Of a stretch of DNA of 64,000 bases, positions 19,472-26,568 are shown piece by piece. This DNA is from Agromyces aurantiacus (GTDB lineage: Bacteria; Actinomycetota; Actinomycetes; Actinomycetales; Microbacteriaceae). The notes beneath the pieces are model-generated. The model was not told where the DNA came from. It saw only the letters and a list, made by a program, of their open reading frames with translations, and did not search any database. Position numbers and translations under genes: made by a program. Position 1 is the first letter of the stretch; each line of letters starts with the position of its first letter. The stretch spans positions 3,162,001-3,226,000 of the forward strand of contig NZ_JAFBBW010000001.1 of assembly GCF_016907355.1 (NCBI RefSeq). Reading direction: 5' to 3'.

Positions 19472-19530
19472 GGGTCGCGGTAGCGTGCCGCCTGCGGGCG
19501 CGGATGGCGCGTCCGAGGAGGGAGCCCGCC

Positions 19531-20151
19531 ATGCCGCTCGTCACCTGCGACATCTCCATCTCGATCGACGGCTTCGCCGCCGGCCCCGACCAGACGAGAG
19601 CGCATCCGCTCGGCCGGATCGACGAGAACATCCTCCACGCCTGGATGTTCGAGCGTCGCGACGAGAACCGAGACGAGGTCGAGGCCATCGTCGATGCCGG
19701 CGCCTTCATCATGGGCCGCCACATGTTCGGTCCCGACCGCGGCGATTGGGACCTCGACTGGCACGGCTGGTGGGGCGACGACCCGCCGTACCACGCGCCG
19801 GTGTTCGTGCTCGGGCACCGCGAACGCGACGAGCTCGCGATGGCGGGCGGCACGACGTTCCACTTCGTGACGGGCGGCATCCACGAGGCGCTCGACCGGG
19901 CACGCGCCGCGGCCGGCGATCGCAACGTCGCCGTCGCCGGCGGCGCCGCGACCGTGAACCAGTACCTGGCCGCCGGACTCATCGACGAGCTGCGCCTGCA
20001 CGTCGTGCCCGCGGTCATCGGAGCGGGCGAGCGGCTGTTCGACGGGGTCCCGCGCACGATGTTCGAACAGGTTTCATCGCGCGGCACGTCGCTCGTGACG
20101 CACCTCACGTACCGCCCCCGCCGCAGCACGGAAGGCCGGGCGCGCGCGTAG
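19531..20151 (+). CDS. Dihydrofolate reductase-family protein (RibD C-terminal fold)
   Basis: The 206-residue protein has the RibD_C/DHFR fold: CDISISIDGFAAGPDQ at the start, AFIMGRHMFGPD, FVLGHRER, VAVAGGAATVNQYLAAGLIDEL and VVPAVIGAGERLFDG. This is the DHFR-like family common in actinobacteria. It is not a classic FolA. A gaggagg site lies before ATG 19531. It likely binds NADPH; the substrate is unknown. It stands alone between the helicase and the Pr6Pr gene. Confidence 0.88.
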   Translation: MPLVTCDISISIDGFAAGPDQTRAHPLGRIDENILHAWMFERRDENRDEVEAIVDAGAFIMGRHMFGPDRGDWDLDWHGWWGDDPPYHAPVFVLGHRERDELAMAGGTTFHFVTGGIHEALDRARAAAGDRNVAVAGGAATVNQYLAAGLIDELRLHVVPAVIGAGERLFDGVPRTMFEQVSSRGTSLVTHLTYRPRRSTEGRARA

Positions 20152-20183: not shown

Positions 20184-20906
20184 TCAGGCGGGCCGGCGAG
20201 CGCGCCCGCGGTCGCGGACGAGTCCGACGACGGCGGCCGCGAGCCGATCGAGCAGGATCACGATCACCGAGAGCACCGCGATGTAGGCGAGCACCTCGAG
20301 CATCGCCACGAAGGAGCCGAGCGCGCCGAGCGCGTCGGTGTCGAGGAAGGGGTACGGGAACCGGTCGGGCACCTCGGGCAGCGCCAGCGCGCGCCAGAGG
20401 AAGATCATGCCGTAGGCGAACGGGTACAGCACCCACCATCCGATGTCGCGCCACCGGACCACGCGGTGCGGGCCGAACGCGATCCAGTCGAGCAGCACCA
20501 TCACGGGCACGACGTAGTGCACCGCGAACAGCGCCCGGTTGGCGAGCTGGTCGGCGGGGTCGGCGACGACGAGCCCGGGCAGCGGGTTCTCGAGGTGGTT
20601 GAGCAGCACGTGCGAGACGATCATGGTGGTGAGGATCCACACCGTGACCCCGCCGCGCAGGCGCGGCGCCGGGGGCGCCGTCGTGGCGCGCCGCACCATC
20701 CAGTACAGCGCACCCGCGTAGTAGCCGAACACGATCACGTTGCTCTGGGTGGTGAAGTACGCGAGTCGGCGCTCCGCCGCGACGAGCCCCCAGAGCACGA
20801 CCACGACGATGAGCACCCGCCACCAGAACTGCGGCGTCATCCACACGTTCACGCGCCGCTCGGCGACGTCTCGGTCGACGGACTGCTCTGCTGCAACGAC
20901 CGCCAC
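20184..20906 (-). CDS. Pr6Pr-type six-helix membrane protein
   Basis: The 240-residue protein has six membrane segments beginning with FWWRVLIVVVVLWG and conserved motifs FTTQSNVIV and MVLLDWIAFGPHR, as in the Pr6Pr (FAR-17a/AIG1-like) family. GTG 20906 was chosen because AGGAGG lies six bases before it; ATG 20924 is a weaker alternative. No catalytic residues are certain. Related eukaryotic proteins hydrolyse fatty acid esters of hydroxy fatty acids, but that activity is not shown for bacterial members. Confidence 0.82.
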   Translation of the reverse strand: MAVVAAEQSVDRDVAERRVNVWMTPQFWWRVLIVVVVLWGLVAAERRLAYFTTQSNVIVFGYYAGALYWMVRRATTAPPAPRLRGGVTVWILTTMIVSHVLLNHLENPLPGLVVADPADQLANRALFAVHYVVPVMVLLDWIAFGPHRVVRWRDIGWWVLYPFAYGMIFLWRALALPEVPDRFPYPFLDTDALGALGSFVAMLEVLAYIAVLSVIVILLDRLAAAVVGLVRDRGRARRPA

Positions 20907-20938: not shown

Positions 20939-21682
20939 TCAGGCGCGAGCGTAACGCACGAACAGCATGCGCTCGCCGGCGATCGCGTGCACGAGGCGCA
21001 GCGAGCGGGCCACCTCGTGCGCCGACGACGCGATGCGCGGCGCGTCGCCCGCGACGAGGGTGGGGCTCACGGTCACGCACGCCTCGTCGACGAGGTCGGC
21101 CTCGGCGAGCGCGCCGAACAGGCCCGGGCCACCCTCGGAGAGCACCGACCGCAGGCCGCGCGCCGCGAGCGCGTCGAGTGCGGCCCGCAGGTCGACGCGC
21201 TCGTCGCCCGCGATCACGACGTCGGCGACCCCGGAGAGCGCGTCGCGACGCTCGCGCGGCGCGCGGGCGTTCGTGACGACGATCGGTCGCGTGAGCGCCT
21301 CGGCGAAGAACGGATCGCTCGGCTCGAACGCGAGGCGCGAGGAGACGACCGCGAACCGGGGCTGCGGGTCGCGCCCCCGCGCCGTTCGCCAGGCCGCGTC
21401 GGGCTCGGCCACCGCGGCGCCGCCGTAACCCTCGGCGGCGACCGTGCCCGAGCCGACCAGCACGACGTCGGCGTGCGACCGGAGGACCGACATGAGCCGC
21501 TGGTCCTGGGCGTCGCCGAGCGTGCCGCTGCGGCCGCCGAGCGTCGCCGCGCCGTCGAGGCTGGAGATCATGTTCACGCGGCAGAACGCGGCCTCCGCTC
21601 GTGCGCCCGCGTCGACCACGTCGACCGCGTACGCGGCGTGCATGCGATCGGCGTCGAACGCGGCGCCGGAGCCGGCGATCAC
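20939..21682 (-). CDS. Pyrimidine reductase-family protein (RibD C-terminal domain only)
   Basis: The 247-residue protein has CRVNMISSLDGAATLGGRSG, LRSHADVVLVGSGTVAAEGYG and a glycine-rich VLSEGGPGLFGALAEADLVDE, all RibD_C signatures for NADPH-dependent reduction of the ribityl pyrimidine. There is no deaminase domain. The GTG start overlaps the FolP2-like stop by four bases, and it is third in a coupled operon. It may act in riboflavin synthesis or on a pterin or F420-related substrate; the context favours the second but does not prove it. Confidence 0.88.
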   Translation of the reverse strand: MIAGSGAAFDADRMHAAYAVDVVDAGARAEAAFCRVNMISSLDGAATLGGRSGTLGDAQDQRLMSVLRSHADVVLVGSGTVAAEGYGGAAVAEPDAAWRTARGRDPQPRFAVVSSRLAFEPSDPFFAEALTRPIVVTNARAPRERRDALSGVADVVIAGDERVDLRAALDALAARGLRSVLSEGGPGLFGALAEADLVDEACVTVSPTLVAGDAPRIASSAHEVARSLRLVHAIAGERMLFVRYARA

Positions 21683-22575
21683 GACGCGCCCCCGGTGGGC
21701 ATGTTGTGCTCGAGGAACACCGGCTCGCGCCATCCCTCGATCGCCTCGACCATGCGCACCGCGTCGACCGTCTCGCGCACGTTGTGGACGCGCAGGATCC
21801 GCGCGCCCTTGCCGATGCAGTACACCGCGGCGGCGAGCGACCCGGCGACGCGGTCGCGCCGGTCGCGGCGGCCCAGGCTCTCGCCGATGAAGTCCTTGTT
21901 CGAGAGGGCCACGAGCAGCGGCAGGCCGATCGCCGCGATCTCGTCGAGGCGGCGCGTCAGCTCGAGCGAGTGCAGCGTGGTCTTGTTGAGGTCGTGCCCG
22001 GGGTCGATCACGAGCCGCTCGTCGGGCACGCCGTGCGCTCGGGCGAGGGCGACCCGGTCCCGCAGGAACGCGGCGACCTCGGCCACCACGTCGCGATACG
22101 TCGGACTCGGGTGCGGCGTGCGCGGTGCGGCGAGGCTGTGCGTCACGACGAGCGTCGCGTCGGAGGCCGCGACGACCTCGGCCATGGCGGGGTCGTGGAT
22201 GCCGGTGGTGTCGTTGATCACGTGCGCGCCTGCGTCGATCGCCCGGCGCGCCACCTCGGGATGGAACGTGTCGACCGAGATCACCGCACCCGACCCGGCC
22301 AGCGCGGCGACGACGGGCACGACCCGCTCGGCCTCCTCGTCGATCGGGATGGGCGGCCCTGGCGCGAACTTCGCGCCGCCGATGTCGACCCAGTCGGCGC
22401 CGGCCTCGACGGCGGCGTGCGCGGCCCGCACCGCGGCGTCGAGCGCGAACGTCTCGCCCCGGTCGTAGAACGAGTCGGGCGTGCGGTTGACGATGGCCAT
22501 GACGGCGACCTGCCGGGTGAAGTCGAACTCGCGCGGGCCGATGCGGCGGCGCAGGGCGGGGCGACCGGCGCTCAT
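21679..22575 (-). CDS. Dihydropteroate synthase-like protein, FolP2 type
   Basis: The 298-residue TIM-barrel protein has the DHPS pattern, but its first motif reads AIVNRTPDSFYDRG. Canonical FolP has GILNVTPDSFSDGG. It also has WVDIGGAKFAPGPPIP where FolP has an Arg-rich ESTRPG. These are the changes of the actinobacterial FolP2 paralogues, which do not replace FolP1. DINTTGIHD-like INDTTGIHD and KGARILRVHNVRET are also present. It is the middle gene of an operon in which each start overlaps the previous stop (ATGA, GTGA). Substrate unknown; folate synthesis should not be assumed. Confidence 0.9.
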   Translation of the reverse strand: MSAGRPALRRRIGPREFDFTRQVAVMAIVNRTPDSFYDRGETFALDAAVRAAHAAVEAGADWVDIGGAKFAPGPPIPIDEEAERVVPVVAALAGSGAVISVDTFHPEVARRAIDAGAHVINDTTGIHDPAMAEVVAASDATLVVTHSLAAPRTPHPSPTYRDVVAEVAAFLRDRVALARAHGVPDERLVIDPGHDLNKTTLHSLELTRRLDEIAAIGLPLLVALSNKDFIGESLGRRDRRDRVAGSLAAAVYCIGKGARILRVHNVRETVDAVRMVEAIEGWREPVFLEHNMPTGGAS

Positions 22576-23819
22576 CCGTCCGCCACGGCGAGCGCCGCGA
22601 GCGGCATCGCGGGGTCGATGAGGCGCGCGGGGTCCACGGCCGCCCGCGAGCGGATCAGGCGCTGCACGGTGTCGTTGACCTTCCACACGTCGACGTTCAT
22701 GCCGGCGACGACCCGGTCGTCGCGGAGCCAGAACGCGACGAACTCGCGACCCGCGCGGTCGCCCCGGAACACCGGCGCGATCCCCGCGGCCAACGGCGCG
22801 TAGCCGGAGTACTCCATGCCGAGATCGTACTGGTCGGTGTAGAAGTACGGGATCTCGTCGTACTCGACGGCCTCGCCGGCGAGCGAGCGGCCGGCGGCCC
22901 GCCCGGCGTGCTCGGCGTTGGCCCAGTGCTCGGTCCGCAGGTGCGCGCCGAGGAACGGCAGGAGCACGCTCGCGACGTCGCCCACCGCGAGCACGTCCGC
23001 GTCGCTCGTGCGGAACGCGGCATCCGTCACGATCCCGCGGTCGACCTCCAATCCGGCGGACTCGGCGAGCGCGGTCTGCGGGATCGCCCCGATGCCGACC
23101 ACGACGACGTCGGCGGGGACGATCTCGCCGCCCTCCAGTTCGACCCCGGTCGCCCGTCCGGCGTCGCCGACGATCCGGGCCACGCTCGTGGACATCCGCA
23201 GGTCGACGCCGTGCTCGCGGTGCAGCTCGCCGAAGACCGCGCCGGCCTCGTCGCCGATCGCCGCGTTGAGCGGCACGGTCTCGAGGCCGAGCACGGTGAC
23301 CTCGTTCCCGTAGCCGCGGGCGGCCGCGGCGACCTCGAGCCCGATCCATCCGGCGCCGATGATCGCGATGCGCCGGCCGCCGGGCGCGAGCGCGTCGCGC
23401 AGAGCCGCCGAGTCCGCGACGGTGCGCAGGAGGTGGACGCCGGCGAGGTCGCCGCCCGGGCCGCCGAACGTCCGTGGCGACGCACCCGTCGCGATCAGGG
23501 CGCGCTCGTAGCGCAGCACCGATCCGTCGTCGAGCGCGAGTTCGTGCGCCCGGGTGTCGAGTCGCTCGGCGCGGCGCCCGAGGCGCAGCTGCACGCGGTG
23601 CTCGCCGTACCAGGCGCGCGGGTGCACGTCGATCGCGTCGCGATCCTCCGTGCCGGCGAGGAAGCCCTTCGACAGGGGCGGCCGGATGTACGGCACCGCC
23701 GTCTCGGCGCCGACGATCACGAGCGGTCCCTCGTATCCCGCTGCACGCGCGCCCTCCGCCGCGCGTGCACCGGCGAGTCCGCCGCCCACGATGACGAGCG
23801 CCCGTTCCGCGCCGGCCAT
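22572..23819 (-). CDS. FAD-dependent ferredoxin reductase-like oxidoreductase
   Basis: The 415-residue protein has two dinucleotide folds: VIVGGGLAGARAAE for FAD and IAIIGAGWIGLEVAAAA for NAD(P). It also has IATGASPR and VLAVGDVAS and a C-terminal Reductase_C domain. This is the putidaredoxin/ferredoxin reductase family, moving electrons from NAD(P)H to a ferredoxin. No ferredoxin gene is near. It leads the operon with FolP2-like and pyrimidine-reductase-like genes and has a consensus promoter. ATG 23819 was chosen; GTG 23825 and 23828 are alternatives. Confidence 0.9.
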   Translation of the reverse strand: MAGAERALVIVGGGLAGARAAEGARAAGYEGPLVIVGAETAVPYIRPPLSKGFLAGTEDRDAIDVHPRAWYGEHRVQLRLGRRAERLDTRAHELALDDGSVLRYERALIATGASPRTFGGPGGDLAGVHLLRTVADSAALRDALAPGGRRIAIIGAGWIGLEVAAAARGYGNEVTVLGLETVPLNAAIGDEAGAVFGELHREHGVDLRMSTSVARIVGDAGRATGVELEGGEIVPADVVVVGIGAIPQTALAESAGLEVDRGIVTDAAFRTSDADVLAVGDVASVLLPFLGAHLRTEHWANAEHAGRAAGRSLAGEAVEYDEIPYFYTDQYDLGMEYSGYAPLAAGIAPVFRGDRAGREFVAFWLRDDRVVAGMNVDVWKVNDTVQRLIRSRAAVDPARLIDPAMPLAALAVADG

Positions 23820-23861
23820 GGTCACCACCCCGTTCCGCTCGCGATGTCGCCCCTGCCGCCG

Positions 23862-23890
23862 ACGCTAGGCGCGTCGCGCTCTTCTGTCAA
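23862..23890 (-). promoter_or_regulatory. Sigma-70-type promoter of the reductase/folP2 operon
   Basis: On the minus strand there is a perfect -35 TTGACA (23885-23890), a 17-bp spacer and -10 TAGCGT (23862-23867). It lies 43 bp before the ATG at 23819. Confidence 0.8.
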
Positions 23891-23977
23891 GACTCATCGC
23901 TTTTAGAATCGGCCCGAGTCGACCGATCCATGCAATTCCCAGCCAAGCCCCAGCCGGCATGCAGCAGAATCGTGGAC

Positions 23978-24670
23978 ATGAGCGACGGACCTCGCATCCT
24001 GATCGTCGACGACGAGCCCAACATCCGCGACCTGCTGACCACGAGCCTCCGGTTCGCGGGCTTCGCGGTGCGCGCGGTGGCCAACGGTGCGCAGACCATC
24101 TCGGCGGTGCTCGAGGAGGAGCCCGACCTCATCATCCTCGACGTCATGCTGCCCGACATGAACGGGTTCGGCGTGACCAAGCGGCTCCGCTCGGCGGGCT
24201 ACACCGCGCCGATCCTCTTCCTCACCGCGAAGGACGACACCGAGGACAAGATCACCGGGCTCACGGTCGGCGGCGACGACTACGTCACCAAGCCGTTCAG
24301 ACTCGACGAGATCGTCGCGCGCATCCGCGCCATCCTGCGCCGGACCATGCACGCCGAGGAGGACGCCGTCATCCGCACCGGCGAGCTCACGATGGACCAG
24401 GACACGCACGAGGTGCTCGTCGGCGACGTGCCGGTGGAGCTGTCCCCCACAGAATTCAAGCTGCTTCGCTACCTCATGCTGAACCCCAACCGCGTGCTGT
24501 CGAAGGCCCAGATCCTCGACCACGTGTGGGAGTACGACTTCAACGGCGACGCGGGCATCGTCGAGAGCTACATCTCGTACCTGCGTCGCAAGCTCGACCA
24601 GCACTCCACCGAGCCGCTCATCCAGACCAAGCGCGGCTTCGGGTACATGCTCAAGTCGTCGAAGTCGTAG
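23978..24670 (+). CDS. OmpR-family response regulator (MprA/TrcR-like)
   Basis: The 230-residue protein has a receiver with Asp11-Asp12, phosphoacceptor Asp55 (IILDVMLP) and Lys105, then a winged-helix DNA-binding domain with VESYISYLRRKLD and the terminal KRGFGYML. It works with the histidine kinase 41 bp downstream. By sequence it is close to the TrcR/MprA group; the regulon is unknown. It is divergent from the reductase operon. Confidence 0.92.
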   Translation: MSDGPRILIVDDEPNIRDLLTTSLRFAGFAVRAVANGAQTISAVLEEEPDLIILDVMLPDMNGFGVTKRLRSAGYTAPILFLTAKDDTEDKITGLTVGGDDYVTKPFRLDEIVARIRAILRRTMHAEEDAVIRTGELTMDQDTHEVLVGDVPVELSPTEFKLLRYLMLNPNRVLSKAQILDHVWEYDFNGDAGIVESYISYLRRKLDQHSTEPLIQTKRGFGYMLKSSKS

Positions 24671-24711
24671 CTCAGGCCCGGTACAGGGTGCCTGCGTAGA
24701 CTCGGCCCGCC

Positions 24712-26568
24712 ATGCACCAGACCCTCGCCGACCGGTGGAGCCGGATCTCGCTCCGGACCAAGATCACCGGCGTCACCGTGCTCATGCTGACGCTCGGCCT
24801 GCTGGTCTCCGGCATCGGCACGGCGGCGATGCTGCGCAGCTACGTCGAGAGCCAGCTCGAGTCCAAGCTCAGCGCGATCGCGTCGGGCGACTACTACAAG
24901 TACTTCACCCAGAACGGCGCCGAGCCCGACGACGACGCCAACCTCAGCGGACTCGACTTCAGCTCGTCCGACGACGTGTTCGTCGCCGTCTACGACCCCC
25001 GCACCGGCGAGTTCCTCGACCACAACTGGCGCGACCGCGACCCGTCGACCTACCCGACGATCCCCGAGCGCCTCACCCAGGTCGACGTGGTCGAGCAGAA
25101 CCAGGGCGGCGGGTACCGGGTGTTCTCGCTGCGCGACTCCGCGGGCGAGCCGACGTTCCGTGGCGTGTACGCCCTCATGGACGCCGACGACCGGGGCGGG
25201 CTCGCGCCGATCATCCTCGCGATCTCCTCGCAGGACACCGAGCGCCTGCTCGCGGCATACCTCACGATCTTCCTCGGCTTCGGACTGGGCGTCGTGCTCG
25301 TCGGAGCGCTCCTGACCCGCATGCTCGTCACCTCGACCTTCGCCCCGCTGCGCGAGGTCGAGCGCACGGCGGCCGAGATCGCCGACGGCGACTTCAGCCA
25401 GCGGCTCGGCGGCGCCACCCCGAACACCGAGGTCGGGCGACTCAACCGGTCGCTGAACACGATGCTCAACCGCATCGACCGGGCGTTCCGCGACCGGGCC
25501 CGCACGATCGACCAGATGCGACGGTTCGTCGGCGACGCCTCGCACGAGCTGCGCACGCCCCTCGTCTCGGTGCGGGGGTACGCCGAGCTCTACCGCATGG
25601 GCGCGCTGCAGTCCCCCGGCGACGTGGCCCAGGCGATGGACCGCATCGAGAAGGAGGCCATCCGGATGGGGGGCCTCGTCGAGGATCTCCTCGCGCTCGC
25701 CCGGCTCGACGAGGCCAAGCCGCTCGACCTCGCCGAGGTCGACCTCGTGCCCCTCGCCCGCGACGCGGCGCTCGATGCCATGGCCGCGAACCCCGGCCGG
25801 ACCGTGACCGTCATCGCGCCCGAGGACCTCAGGACCGATTCGACGGAGGTCGTCCAGGTCGACGTCGAGGTCGATCTCGACGCCGCGCCCTCGCGCGCGG
25901 CGGCGGGCCCCATCGCGCTCGCGGGCGCGACGCTCGCGCGCCTGCGCGGTCGCCGCGCGCCGACGGCCGCCGACGCCGGCGTCACCGCGGGACGCGCGCG
26001 ACGGGGCGGGGCCCGCGGCACCGGGAGCACGCGCGCCTCGCGCGCCGAGGCGCGTGCCGCGGCCGCCGCCGGTCGGGCGGCCGCCGAGGCGACGGGCGCC
26101 GAGACCGCCATCGCCGCCTCCGCCGCGACAGCCGGCCCGCCGCCCGCCGAACTGCCGACCGTGCCCGTACGCCGTGCGATCGTGCTCGCCGAGGAGAACA
26201 AGATCCGGCAGGTCATCACCAACCTCATGGGCAACGCCATGCGGTTCACGCCCGACGACAGCCCGATCGAGATCCGCGTGTCGATCGACGACGCCGCGGA
26301 GCGGGCGATGCTCGAGATCGTGGACCACGGCGAGGGCGTGCCGCCGCAGATCCGCGAGAAGATCTTCCAGCGCTTCTGGCGCGCCGACACCTCGCGCACG
26401 CGCGAGACCGGCGGCTCCGGGCTGGGCCTCGCGATCGTCTCCTCGATCGTCGCCGCGCACAACGGGCACGTCGACGTCGTCGAGACGCCGGGCGGCGGGG
26501 CGACCTTCCGGGTGGCGCTGCCGCTGGCCGGCTCGGCGGCCGCGCCGCAGCCCGTGGCCACGGCCTGA
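24712..26568 (+). CDS. Sensor histidine kinase with large alanine/arginine-rich insert
   Basis: The 618-residue kinase has a membrane segment near 20-45, an extracytoplasmic domain with DDDANLSGLDFSSSDDVF, a second membrane segment (180-200), HAMP, and a HisKA domain with His278 (DASHELRTPLVS). About 100 residues of low complexity (382-480) separate HisKA from the ATPase domain, which has the N box NLMGNAMRF (503), HGEGVPPQIREKIF and GGSGLGLAIV. Most kinases of this class have about 20-30 residues at that point. The tail repeats alanine. It pairs with the regulator upstream. Confidence 0.93.
   Translation: MHQTLADRWSRISLRTKITGVTVLMLTLGLLVSGIGTAAMLRSYVESQLESKLSAIASGDYYKYFTQNGAEPDDDANLSGLDFSSSDDVFVAVYDPRTGEFLDHNWRDRDPSTYPTIPERLTQVDVVEQNQGGGYRVFSLRDSAGEPTFRGVYALMDADDRGGLAPIILAISSQDTERLLAAYLTIFLGFGLGVVLVGALLTRMLVTSTFAPLREVERTAAEIADGDFSQRLGGATPNTEVGRLNRSLNTMLNRIDRAFRDRARTIDQMRRFVGDASHELRTPLVSVRGYAELYRMGALQSPGDVAQAMDRIEKEAIRMGGLVEDLLALARLDEAKPLDLAEVDLVPLARDAALDAMAANPGRTVTVIAPEDLRTDSTEVVQVDVEVDLDAAPSRAAAGPIALAGATLARLRGRRAPTAADAGVTAGRARRGGARGTGSTRASRAEARAAAAAGRAAAEATGAETAIAASAATAGPPPAELPTVPVRRAIVLAEENKIRQVITNLMGNAMRFTPDDSPIEIRVSIDDAAERAMLEIVDHGEGVPPQIREKIFQRFWRADTSRTRETGGSGLGLAIVSSIVAAHNGHVDVVETPGGGATFRVALPLAGSAAAPQPVATA

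What the first reader, a model, noticed from the sequence alone, without database searches (positions are those of the whole stretch)
20939..23890. Coupled operon of ferredoxin-type reductase, FolP2-like and pyrimidine-reductase-like genes
Three enzymes overlap by four bases each behind a consensus promoter. The FolP2-like protein lacks canonical DHPS motifs (NRTPDSFYDRG, GGAKFAPG), so a non-folate pterin or related cofactor step is plausible. This may be an undescribed redox-cofactor pathway.
Basis: partly seen in the sequence, partly recalled or inferred. Interest (0 to 1): 0.7.

Follow-up and report, generated by a model that had tools for sequence, protein, structure and literature searches.

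The report
Operon for a non-folate pterin
A soil bacterium carries a conserved pair of genes that resemble two steps of folate synthesis but whose first enzyme has lost the pocket for folate's usual building block, so together they probably make a related vitamin-like molecule that has not been identified.

Summary
The three genes are real and overlap by four bases at both junctions, behind the window's only TTGACA-N16-18-TANNNT site. The middle gene is FolP2, an actinobacterial DHPS paralogue of unknown function; the third is a homologue of the weak DHFR analogue Rv2671. FolP2 keeps the pterin and pyrophosphate residues checked, but its pABA pocket is replaced, and in a tree of 83 rows it is split from 17 folate-type DHPSs with full support. 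In 150 Microbacteriaceae genomes, 79 of 80 with FolP2 carry this reductase beside it and 0 of 70 without FolP2 have it. Adjacency recurs in two other FolP2 branches. A GTP cyclohydrolase I gene lies about 1.5 kb or less upstream in at least 18 of those 80 genomes, in seven as the only copy found. The ferredoxin reductase is accessory. Best reading: FolP2 joins dihydropterin pyrophosphate to an amine other than pABA, and the Rv2671-type enzyme reduces the product to a tetrahydropterin. Acceptor and product are unknown. The families are known; the link was found in no paper searched.

The parts
23862..23890 (-). Putative promoter, TTGACA-17-TAGCGT, ending about 42 bases before the first gene
   Evidence: Only match of TTGACA-N16-18-TANNNT in the window, 0.01 expected; strict sigma-70 scan found none
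22572..23819 (-). Ferredoxin/rubredoxin-type NAD(P)H reductase (415 aa), accessory gene
   Evidence: PF07992 + PF14759; best solved relatives 3lxd and putidaredoxin reductase; a homologue is adjacent upstream of folP2 in 42 of 80 named loci
22572..22575 (-). ATGA overlap of reductase stop and folP2 start
   Evidence: Sequence
21679..22575 (-). folP2: DHPS paralogue with pterin/pyrophosphate site kept and pABA pocket replaced (298 aa)
   Evidence: PF00809 233 bits; best solved relative 2vp8 'dihydropteroate synthase 2' E 2.6e-56; residue table; tree
21679..21682 (-). GTGA overlap of folP2 stop and RibD2 start
   Evidence: Sequence
20939..21682 (-). RibD2: Rv2671-type pyrimidine-reductase-family / DHFR-analogue gene (247 aa, GTG start)
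   Evidence: PF01872; NF010663 190.4 bits, cut-off 184; best solved relative 4xrb Rv2671 E 3.8e-38; the Rv2671 segment hits it at 122 bits, the next own-genome paralogue among 8 of 13 examined at 50 bits

Best explanation
The operon encodes part of a pathway for a non-folate tetrahydropterin. FolP2 is a pterin-alkylating enzyme: it binds 6-hydroxymethyl-7,8-dihydropterin pyrophosphate like DHPS but transfers the pterin-methyl group to an amine other than p-aminobenzoate, one without the carboxylate that DHPS recognises. The Rv2671-type reductase (RibD2) then reduces the dihydropterin product with NADPH, as DHFR does for dihydrofolate. GTP cyclohydrolase I, encoded upstream of the pair in some relatives, feeds the pathway; here the single FolE found, and presumably FolB and FolK (not looked for), supply the pterin. 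The ferredoxin-type reductase is accessory, perhaps keeping the product or its user reduced. Shown: gene anatomy, residue changes, family membership, conservation, co-presence. Inferred: both reactions, product class, the reductase's role. Unknown: the acceptor.
For: 1) Residues N22, D56, N115, D185, K221, R255, H257 (E. coli numbering; roles recalled) are identical in 126 of 126 FolP2 rows and D96 is D119/E7, while T62 and R63 are lost in all 126 (circular, since rows were sorted on these two). Not used for sorting: E60 is lost and G189 is D in 126 of 126, R220 is N in 114 (R in 11, H in 1), and position 222 (R10 S5 A1 in 16 FolP1) is D in 117 of 126. 2) In a tree of 83 of these 143 rows, FolP2 (66) and FolP1 (17, E. 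coli included) are the two sides of one branch, support 100/99. 3) 150 Microbacteriaceae: both genes in 79, FolP2 alone 1, RibD2 alone 0, neither 70; all 79 pairs within 500 bases on the same strand, 78 with RibD2 downstream; 11 genera are split, always for both genes together. 4) Adjacency recurs in other FolP2 branches: one lineage of family f19 (two near-identical genomes, L136, L137, with a more distant RibD2, 34% identity), one genome of the mycobacterial/streptomycete branch (L177), and on the opposite strand within 4 kb in 4 of 5 Thermomonosporaceae loci. 5) FolE about 1.5 kb or less upstream, same strand, in at least 18 of 80 FolP2 genomes, in 7 of them the only FolE match; two FolE matches (some may be one gene in pieces) in 21 of 80 FolP2 genomes and 2 of 70 others. 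6) Rv2671's DHFR activity is called greatly reduced relative to DfrA (PMC4879365 passage), so dihydrofolate may not be its proper substrate. The residues equivalent to Rv2671 N44, D67 and E193, reported to contact an antifolate in simulations (N32, D55, E181 in PMC10530724; the offset of 12 is my reading), are invariant in 24 of 24 rows. 7) Folate is covered elsewhere: folP1 beside folE, and a DHFR. 8) M. leprae folP2 does not complement an E. coli folP mutant (as told in PMC1971073).
Against: No metabolite, activity or expression data. DHPS family models still score FolP2 above cut-off. Co-loss within Microbacteriaceae could be deletion of one adjacent block and need not mean shared function. 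Across the class the association is looser: 172 both, 11 FolP2 only, 14 RibD2 only, 39 neither, of 236; outside the own family and the small-genome family f88: 164, 11, 14, 10 of 199 (odds ratio 10.6, p 1.5e-5, genomes treated as independent, thresholds set after seeing the scores). None of 16 Micromonosporaceae loci has RibD2 in its flanks. The window's FolP2 lies in a different sub-branch from mycobacterial FolP2, so mycobacterial data carry over only in part.
Confidence: 0.5

Rival explanations
1. Auxiliary folate enzymes: FolP2 is a weak or conditional DHPS and RibD2 a back-up DHFR, together a spare folate route used under antifolate stress.
For: TIGR01496 DHPS equivalog 274 bits, cut-off 162.6. 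Rv2671 has some DHFR activity. Loss of folP2 raised sulfamethoxazole susceptibility in two mycobacteria (PMC7809127 passages). FolE joins the cluster.
Against: pABA-side residues differ from FolP1 in the FolP2 rows examined; M. leprae folP2 does not complement E. coli folP (PMC1971073 passage) and M. tuberculosis FolP2 is called predicted to be defective in dihydropteroate synthesis (PMC7809127 passage); folP1, folE and a DHFR are present in the same genome; 70 of 150 relatives lack the pair.
Confidence: 0.2
2. Ribose-side chemistry: the acceptor is a ribosylated or ribityl aminopyrimidine or arylamine (as in methanopterin or riboflavin synthesis) and RibD2 does the RibD-type sugar reduction rather than reducing the pterin ring.
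For: RibD2 belongs to the RibD_C family whose usual reaction is ribosyl-to-ribityl reduction (reaction recalled). An acceptor without a carboxylate fits the changed pocket.
Against: The methanopterin acceptor enzyme, RFAP synthase TIGR00144, has no match over cut-off in 60 family genomes, own included; one weak hit of 20 bits. The closest solved relative, Rv2671, is reported as a DHFR rather than a deaminase (PMC12855090 passage).
Confidence: 0.13
3. FolP2 is a pterin-binding protein that no longer makes a C-N bond (regulator, pyrophosphatase or methyl-carrier enzyme), and RibD2 recycles a pterin independently.
For: Pterin_bind also covers non-DHPS enzymes (recalled). Position 222 and loop 2 are rebuilt.
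Against: N22, K221, R255 and H257 are invariant in 126 of 126 rows, which argues for kept pterin-pyrophosphate chemistry (roles recalled).
Confidence: 0.1
4. No functional link: synteny by descent, three unrelated genes co-transcribed by chance.
For: The ferredoxin reductase comes and goes; Micromonosporaceae have FolP2 without RibD2 nearby.
Against: 79 of 80 adjacency and joint absence in 11 split genera; adjacency in three FolP2 branches, with swapped order in two named loci (L054, L055) and opposite orientation in Thermomonosporaceae.
Confidence: 0.07

Closest known systems
FolP2 of mycobacteria (Rv1207, structure 2vp8)
   Same: Same side of the tree against folate-type DHPS; same NRTPDSF, HD and SNKD signatures.
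   Different: Window FolP2 is in another sub-branch (GHDLNK; loop 2 KFA instead of KAG) and is coupled to RibD2 and a ferredoxin reductase, whereas L146, next to 2vp8 in the tree, has a family-2 glycosyltransferase downstream.
Rv2671 (RibD-like DHFR analogue, 4xrb)
   Same: Best solved relative; PRK14059 family model NF010663 met; N44, D67, E193 equivalents invariant.
   Different: About 37% identical over 219 residues; sits in a folP2 operon here. No paper held contains both words folP2 and Rv2671.
Dihydropteroate synthase FolP1
   Same: Pterin_bind domain; pterin and pyrophosphate residues.
   Different: pABA-side residues replaced; not in the folE-folP cluster of the genome.
Fused DHPS/dihydropteroate reductase of Helicobacter (mentioned in PMC1971073)
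   Same: A DHPS-type enzyme coupled to a dihydropterin reductase.
   Different: There the reductase is flavin-dependent and fused to DHPS; here a separate RibD-family reductase in a genome that already has another DHPS gene and a DHFR gene.
Methanopterin synthesis
   Same: A DHPS-like enzyme using an acceptor without the pABA carboxylate (recalled).
   Different: RFAP synthase not found over cut-off in 60 of 60 family genomes.

Membership tests
Dihydropteroate synthase (EC 2.5.1.15) | Pterin_bind domain with pterin/pyrophosphate residues | tested here: met
   PF00809 E 4.3e-69; N22, D56, D96, N115, D185, K221, R255, H257 kept in the window protein
Dihydropteroate synthase (EC 2.5.1.15) | pABA-site residues T62, R63, S222 (roles recalled) | tested here: not met
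   F, A, D in the window protein. Caution: position 222 is S in only 5 of 16 FolP1 rows here
Dihydropteroate synthase (EC 2.5.1.15) | Makes dihydropteroate from pABA | not testable with these tools
   Needs an assay
FolP2 clade of Actinomycetota | Groups with 2vp8 apart from folate-type DHPS | tested here: met
   One branch, 66 vs 17 rows, 100/99, 100% of 200 bootstrap trees
FolP2 clade of Actinomycetota | Changed pABA pocket with kept pterin site | tested here: met
   Residue table of 126 rows
Rv2671-type reductase (PRK14059) | Curated family score | tested here: met
   NF010663 190.4 bits vs cut-off 184; NF010664 199.2 vs 226 and NF010665 152.5 vs 274 not reached
Rv2671-type reductase (PRK14059) | Antifolate-contact residues N, D, E | tested here: met
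   N37, D60, E183 invariant in 24 of 24 rows; such residues may also serve other RibD substrates
Rv2671-type reductase (PRK14059) | NADPH-dependent dihydropterin reduction | not testable with these tools
   Needs an assay
Ferredoxin--NAD(P)H reductase (BphA4/putidaredoxin reductase type) | Pyr_redox_2 plus Reductase_C | tested here: met
   3lxd E 3.1e-74. No NCBIfam equivalog cut-off is reached (best 314.6 of 650)
Ferredoxin--NAD(P)H reductase (BphA4/putidaredoxin reductase type) | A ferredoxin or oxygenase partner | not tested
   None among the three operon genes; the rest of the genome was not searched for one
Tetrahydromethanopterin pathway | RFAP synthase | tested here: not met
   0 of 60 family genomes over cut-off, 1 weak hit; the control rang in 4 archaea of 14 genomes

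The most novel reading that the evidence does not exclude
Much of the phylum Actinomycetota makes a second, undescribed pteroate-like tetrahydropterin coenzyme beside folate, built by FolP2 on an amine other than pABA and reduced by Rv2671-type reductases; the mycobacterial FolP2 and Rv2671 puzzles would then be two halves of one pathway.
Probability: 0.33. Interest if true: 0.9.

Novelty: new variant of a known kind. Interest (0 to 1): 0.58.

Why it matters
FolP2 is a long-known gene of unknown function, and Rv2671's proper substrate is unsettled. Finding them as neighbours, present and absent together in one family, with a GTP cyclohydrolase beside them in some genomes, turns two open questions into one testable one: what does this pair make? 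If a second tetrahydropterin exists it would be a new coenzyme in many actinobacteria and would bear on how antifolate drugs act there.

Tried and rejected
Methanopterin-type pathway: rejected for lack of RFAP synthase in 60 family genomes. FolP2 as a sulfonamide-resistance Sul enzyme: Sul models score 116-130 bits, far below their cut-offs of 475-600. Other neighbours as constant partners: c23 (one weak ArsR/SmtB hit), c63 and c57 (no family found), a divergent two-component system, TetR and MFS genes in Micromonosporaceae, glycosyltransferase or lysine-decarboxylase-like genes in other clades; none was constant in the loci looked at. Structure prediction of FolP2 and RibD2 was not available. 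An all-against-all comparison timed out and was replaced by a filtered gene set; one search read the wrong protein record and was redone. Score alone could not separate FolP2 from canonical DHPS outside the class (L156, canonical by its motifs, scored 290 bits with A1), so motifs and the tree were used there. Of the 40 loci, one (L162) holds no FolP hit and was dropped, and one (L156) proved FolP1-like. The FolP1 rows were picked by hand from the listings. Class-level thresholds (FolP2 E <= 1e-66; RibD2 cut between 2.4e-36 and 1.8e-35) were set after seeing the scores, and five borderline FolP2 calls (G231, G493, G502, G634, G656) were counted as present without a motif check. FolE counts are lower bounds because the listing is cut. 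The paper searches are by literal words in an open-licence library only.
Full report
What is there. The window comes from a 3.88 Mb genome of Microbacteriaceae, very likely Agromyces: the six best named relatives of the FolP2 protein are Agromyces at 77-86% identity; the own genome itself is unnamed. On the minus strand lie a ferredoxin-type reductase (23819-22572), folP2 (22575-21679) and a RibD_C-family reductase, here RibD2 (21682-20939), overlapping by ATGA and GTGA. A TTGACA-N17-TAGCGT site at 23890-23862 is the only one of its kind in the window, though a strict sigma-70 scan of the region reports nothing.

Families. The first gene is a putidaredoxin-reductase/BphA4-type flavoprotein by Pfam and solved relatives, without reaching any NCBIfam equivalog cut-off shown. 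The second matches Pterin_bind and the DHPS equivalog, with 'dihydropteroate synthase 2' 2vp8 as its best solved relative. The third matches the PRK14059 pyrimidine reductase family (one of three models over cut-off), with Rv2671 as its best solved relative. The Rv2671 segment hits this gene at 122 bits and the next of the own-genome RibD_C paralogues examined at 50 bits (8 regions of 13 matches; two of the eight regions contain this gene, whole or cut). The same genome holds another folP beside folE, and one DHFR, elsewhere, so these genes are extra.

The active site. Aligned to E. coli DHPS, the FolP2 rows (126) keep N22, D56, N115, D185, K221, R255 and H257 without exception, and D96 as D (119) or E (7). 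They differ from 16 actinobacterial FolP1 rows at E60, T62, R63, G189, R220 (still R in 11) and 222 (D in 117). T62 and R63 were used to sort the rows, so those two are circular; the others were not, and a tree of 83 of the 143 rows gives the same split with full support. The pABA role of 62, 63 and 222 is recalled from published DHPS structures. The likely meaning is an unchanged pterin-pyrophosphate half and a new acceptor half.

Conservation. In 80 named loci (the best 80 of at least 542), RibD2 follows folP2 on the same strand in 45 of 47 Microbacteriaceae (the other two, L054 and L055, have the order swapped) and 9 of 10 Micrococcaceae, lies on the opposite strand within 4 kb in 4 of 5 Thermomonosporaceae, and was not found near folP2 in 16 of 16 Micromonosporaceae, the one Streptosporangiaceae or the one unclassified locus (some flanks are short). 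The ferredoxin reductase is adjacent in 35 of 47 Microbacteriaceae, 6 of 10 Micrococcaceae and the unclassified locus, and in none of the other 22, so it is an accessory. In 150 family genomes the two genes are both present in 79, folP2 alone in 1, RibD2 alone in 0, neither in 70, with 11 genera split. Because they are adjacent, joint loss could be one deletion. In 236 class genomes the counts are 172, 11, 14 and 39, and without the own family and f88 they are 164, 11, 14 and 10 (genomes are not independent, thresholds post hoc). Adjacency also occurs in one lineage of family f19 (L136, L137, with a more distant RibD2) and in one genome of the mycobacterial/streptomycete branch (L177), that is in three FolP2 branches.

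A third member. In 17 of 80 named loci a GTP cyclohydrolase I gene lies within 3 kb upstream on the same strand (family assigned on one member). In the 150 genomes it lies about 1.5 kb or less upstream in at least 18 of 80 FolP2 genomes, and in seven of these it is the only FolE match. The conserved C..H and later C columns in 13 FolE rows, own FolE included, fit kept zinc ligands (ligand identity recalled). This ties the cluster to dihydropterin supply. The window's own operon has no FolE.

What is known. PMC1971073 (passages) says that the second folP of high-GC Gram-positives clusters with cell wall genes and that M. leprae folP2 does not complement an E. coli folP mutant. PMC7809127 (passages) reports raised sulfamethoxazole susceptibility on folP2 deletion and calls FolP2 predicted to be defective in dihydropteroate synthesis. 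PMC4879365 (passages) speaks of Rv2671's greatly reduced DHFR activity compared with DfrA; PMC12855090 (passages) calls it a DHFR rather than a deaminase. PMC10530724 (passages) names antifolate contacts in Rv2671 simulations. No paper held contains both folP2 and Rv2671 or folP2, ribD and operon.

Reading. FolP2 most likely couples dihydropterin pyrophosphate to an amine other than pABA, and RibD2 reduces the product. The chief rival is a spare folate route. The acceptor is open; a ribosylated or ribityl aminopyrimidine is one candidate, given the RibD fold, and methanopterin itself is unlikely. I score this as a new variant of a known kind: known enzyme families in a newly recognised, unassigned pathway link.

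Noticed in passing
window 19504-20151 (+): A second, distinct RibD_C-family gene lies two genes from the operon on the other strand; the genome has 13 RibD_C matches in all.
   Followed up: partly
window 23930-26568 (+): A response regulator and a histidine kinase are transcribed divergently from the operon; two neighbour clusters, c3 in 32 and c1 in 36 of 80 loci, lie in the like place in many of the 27 loci printed (not family-checked there). It may regulate the operon or be mere synteny.
   Followed up: no
L072 8716-9333 (+), L073, L088, L089: A conserved protein without any Pfam or NCBIfam match (L072 copy scanned) sits next to folP2, folE or RibD2 in Frigoribacterium, Glaciihabitans and Actinomadura.
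   Followed up: no
L066, L069, L071 upstream of folE: A divergent regulator with a weak ArsR/SmtB hit (L057 copy scanned) accompanies the FolE form of the cluster, and in L066, L069 and L108 a small protein without NCBIfam match (L069 copy scanned).
   Followed up: no
G602 (L181): This genome has two high-scoring matches to the FolP2 profile (456 and 287 bits, four matches in all); the second was not fetched, so whether FolP2 has duplicated into two kinds there is open.
   Followed up: no
window 20184-20900 (-): The next gene after the operon encodes a Pr6Pr-family membrane protein (NF038065).
   Followed up: no
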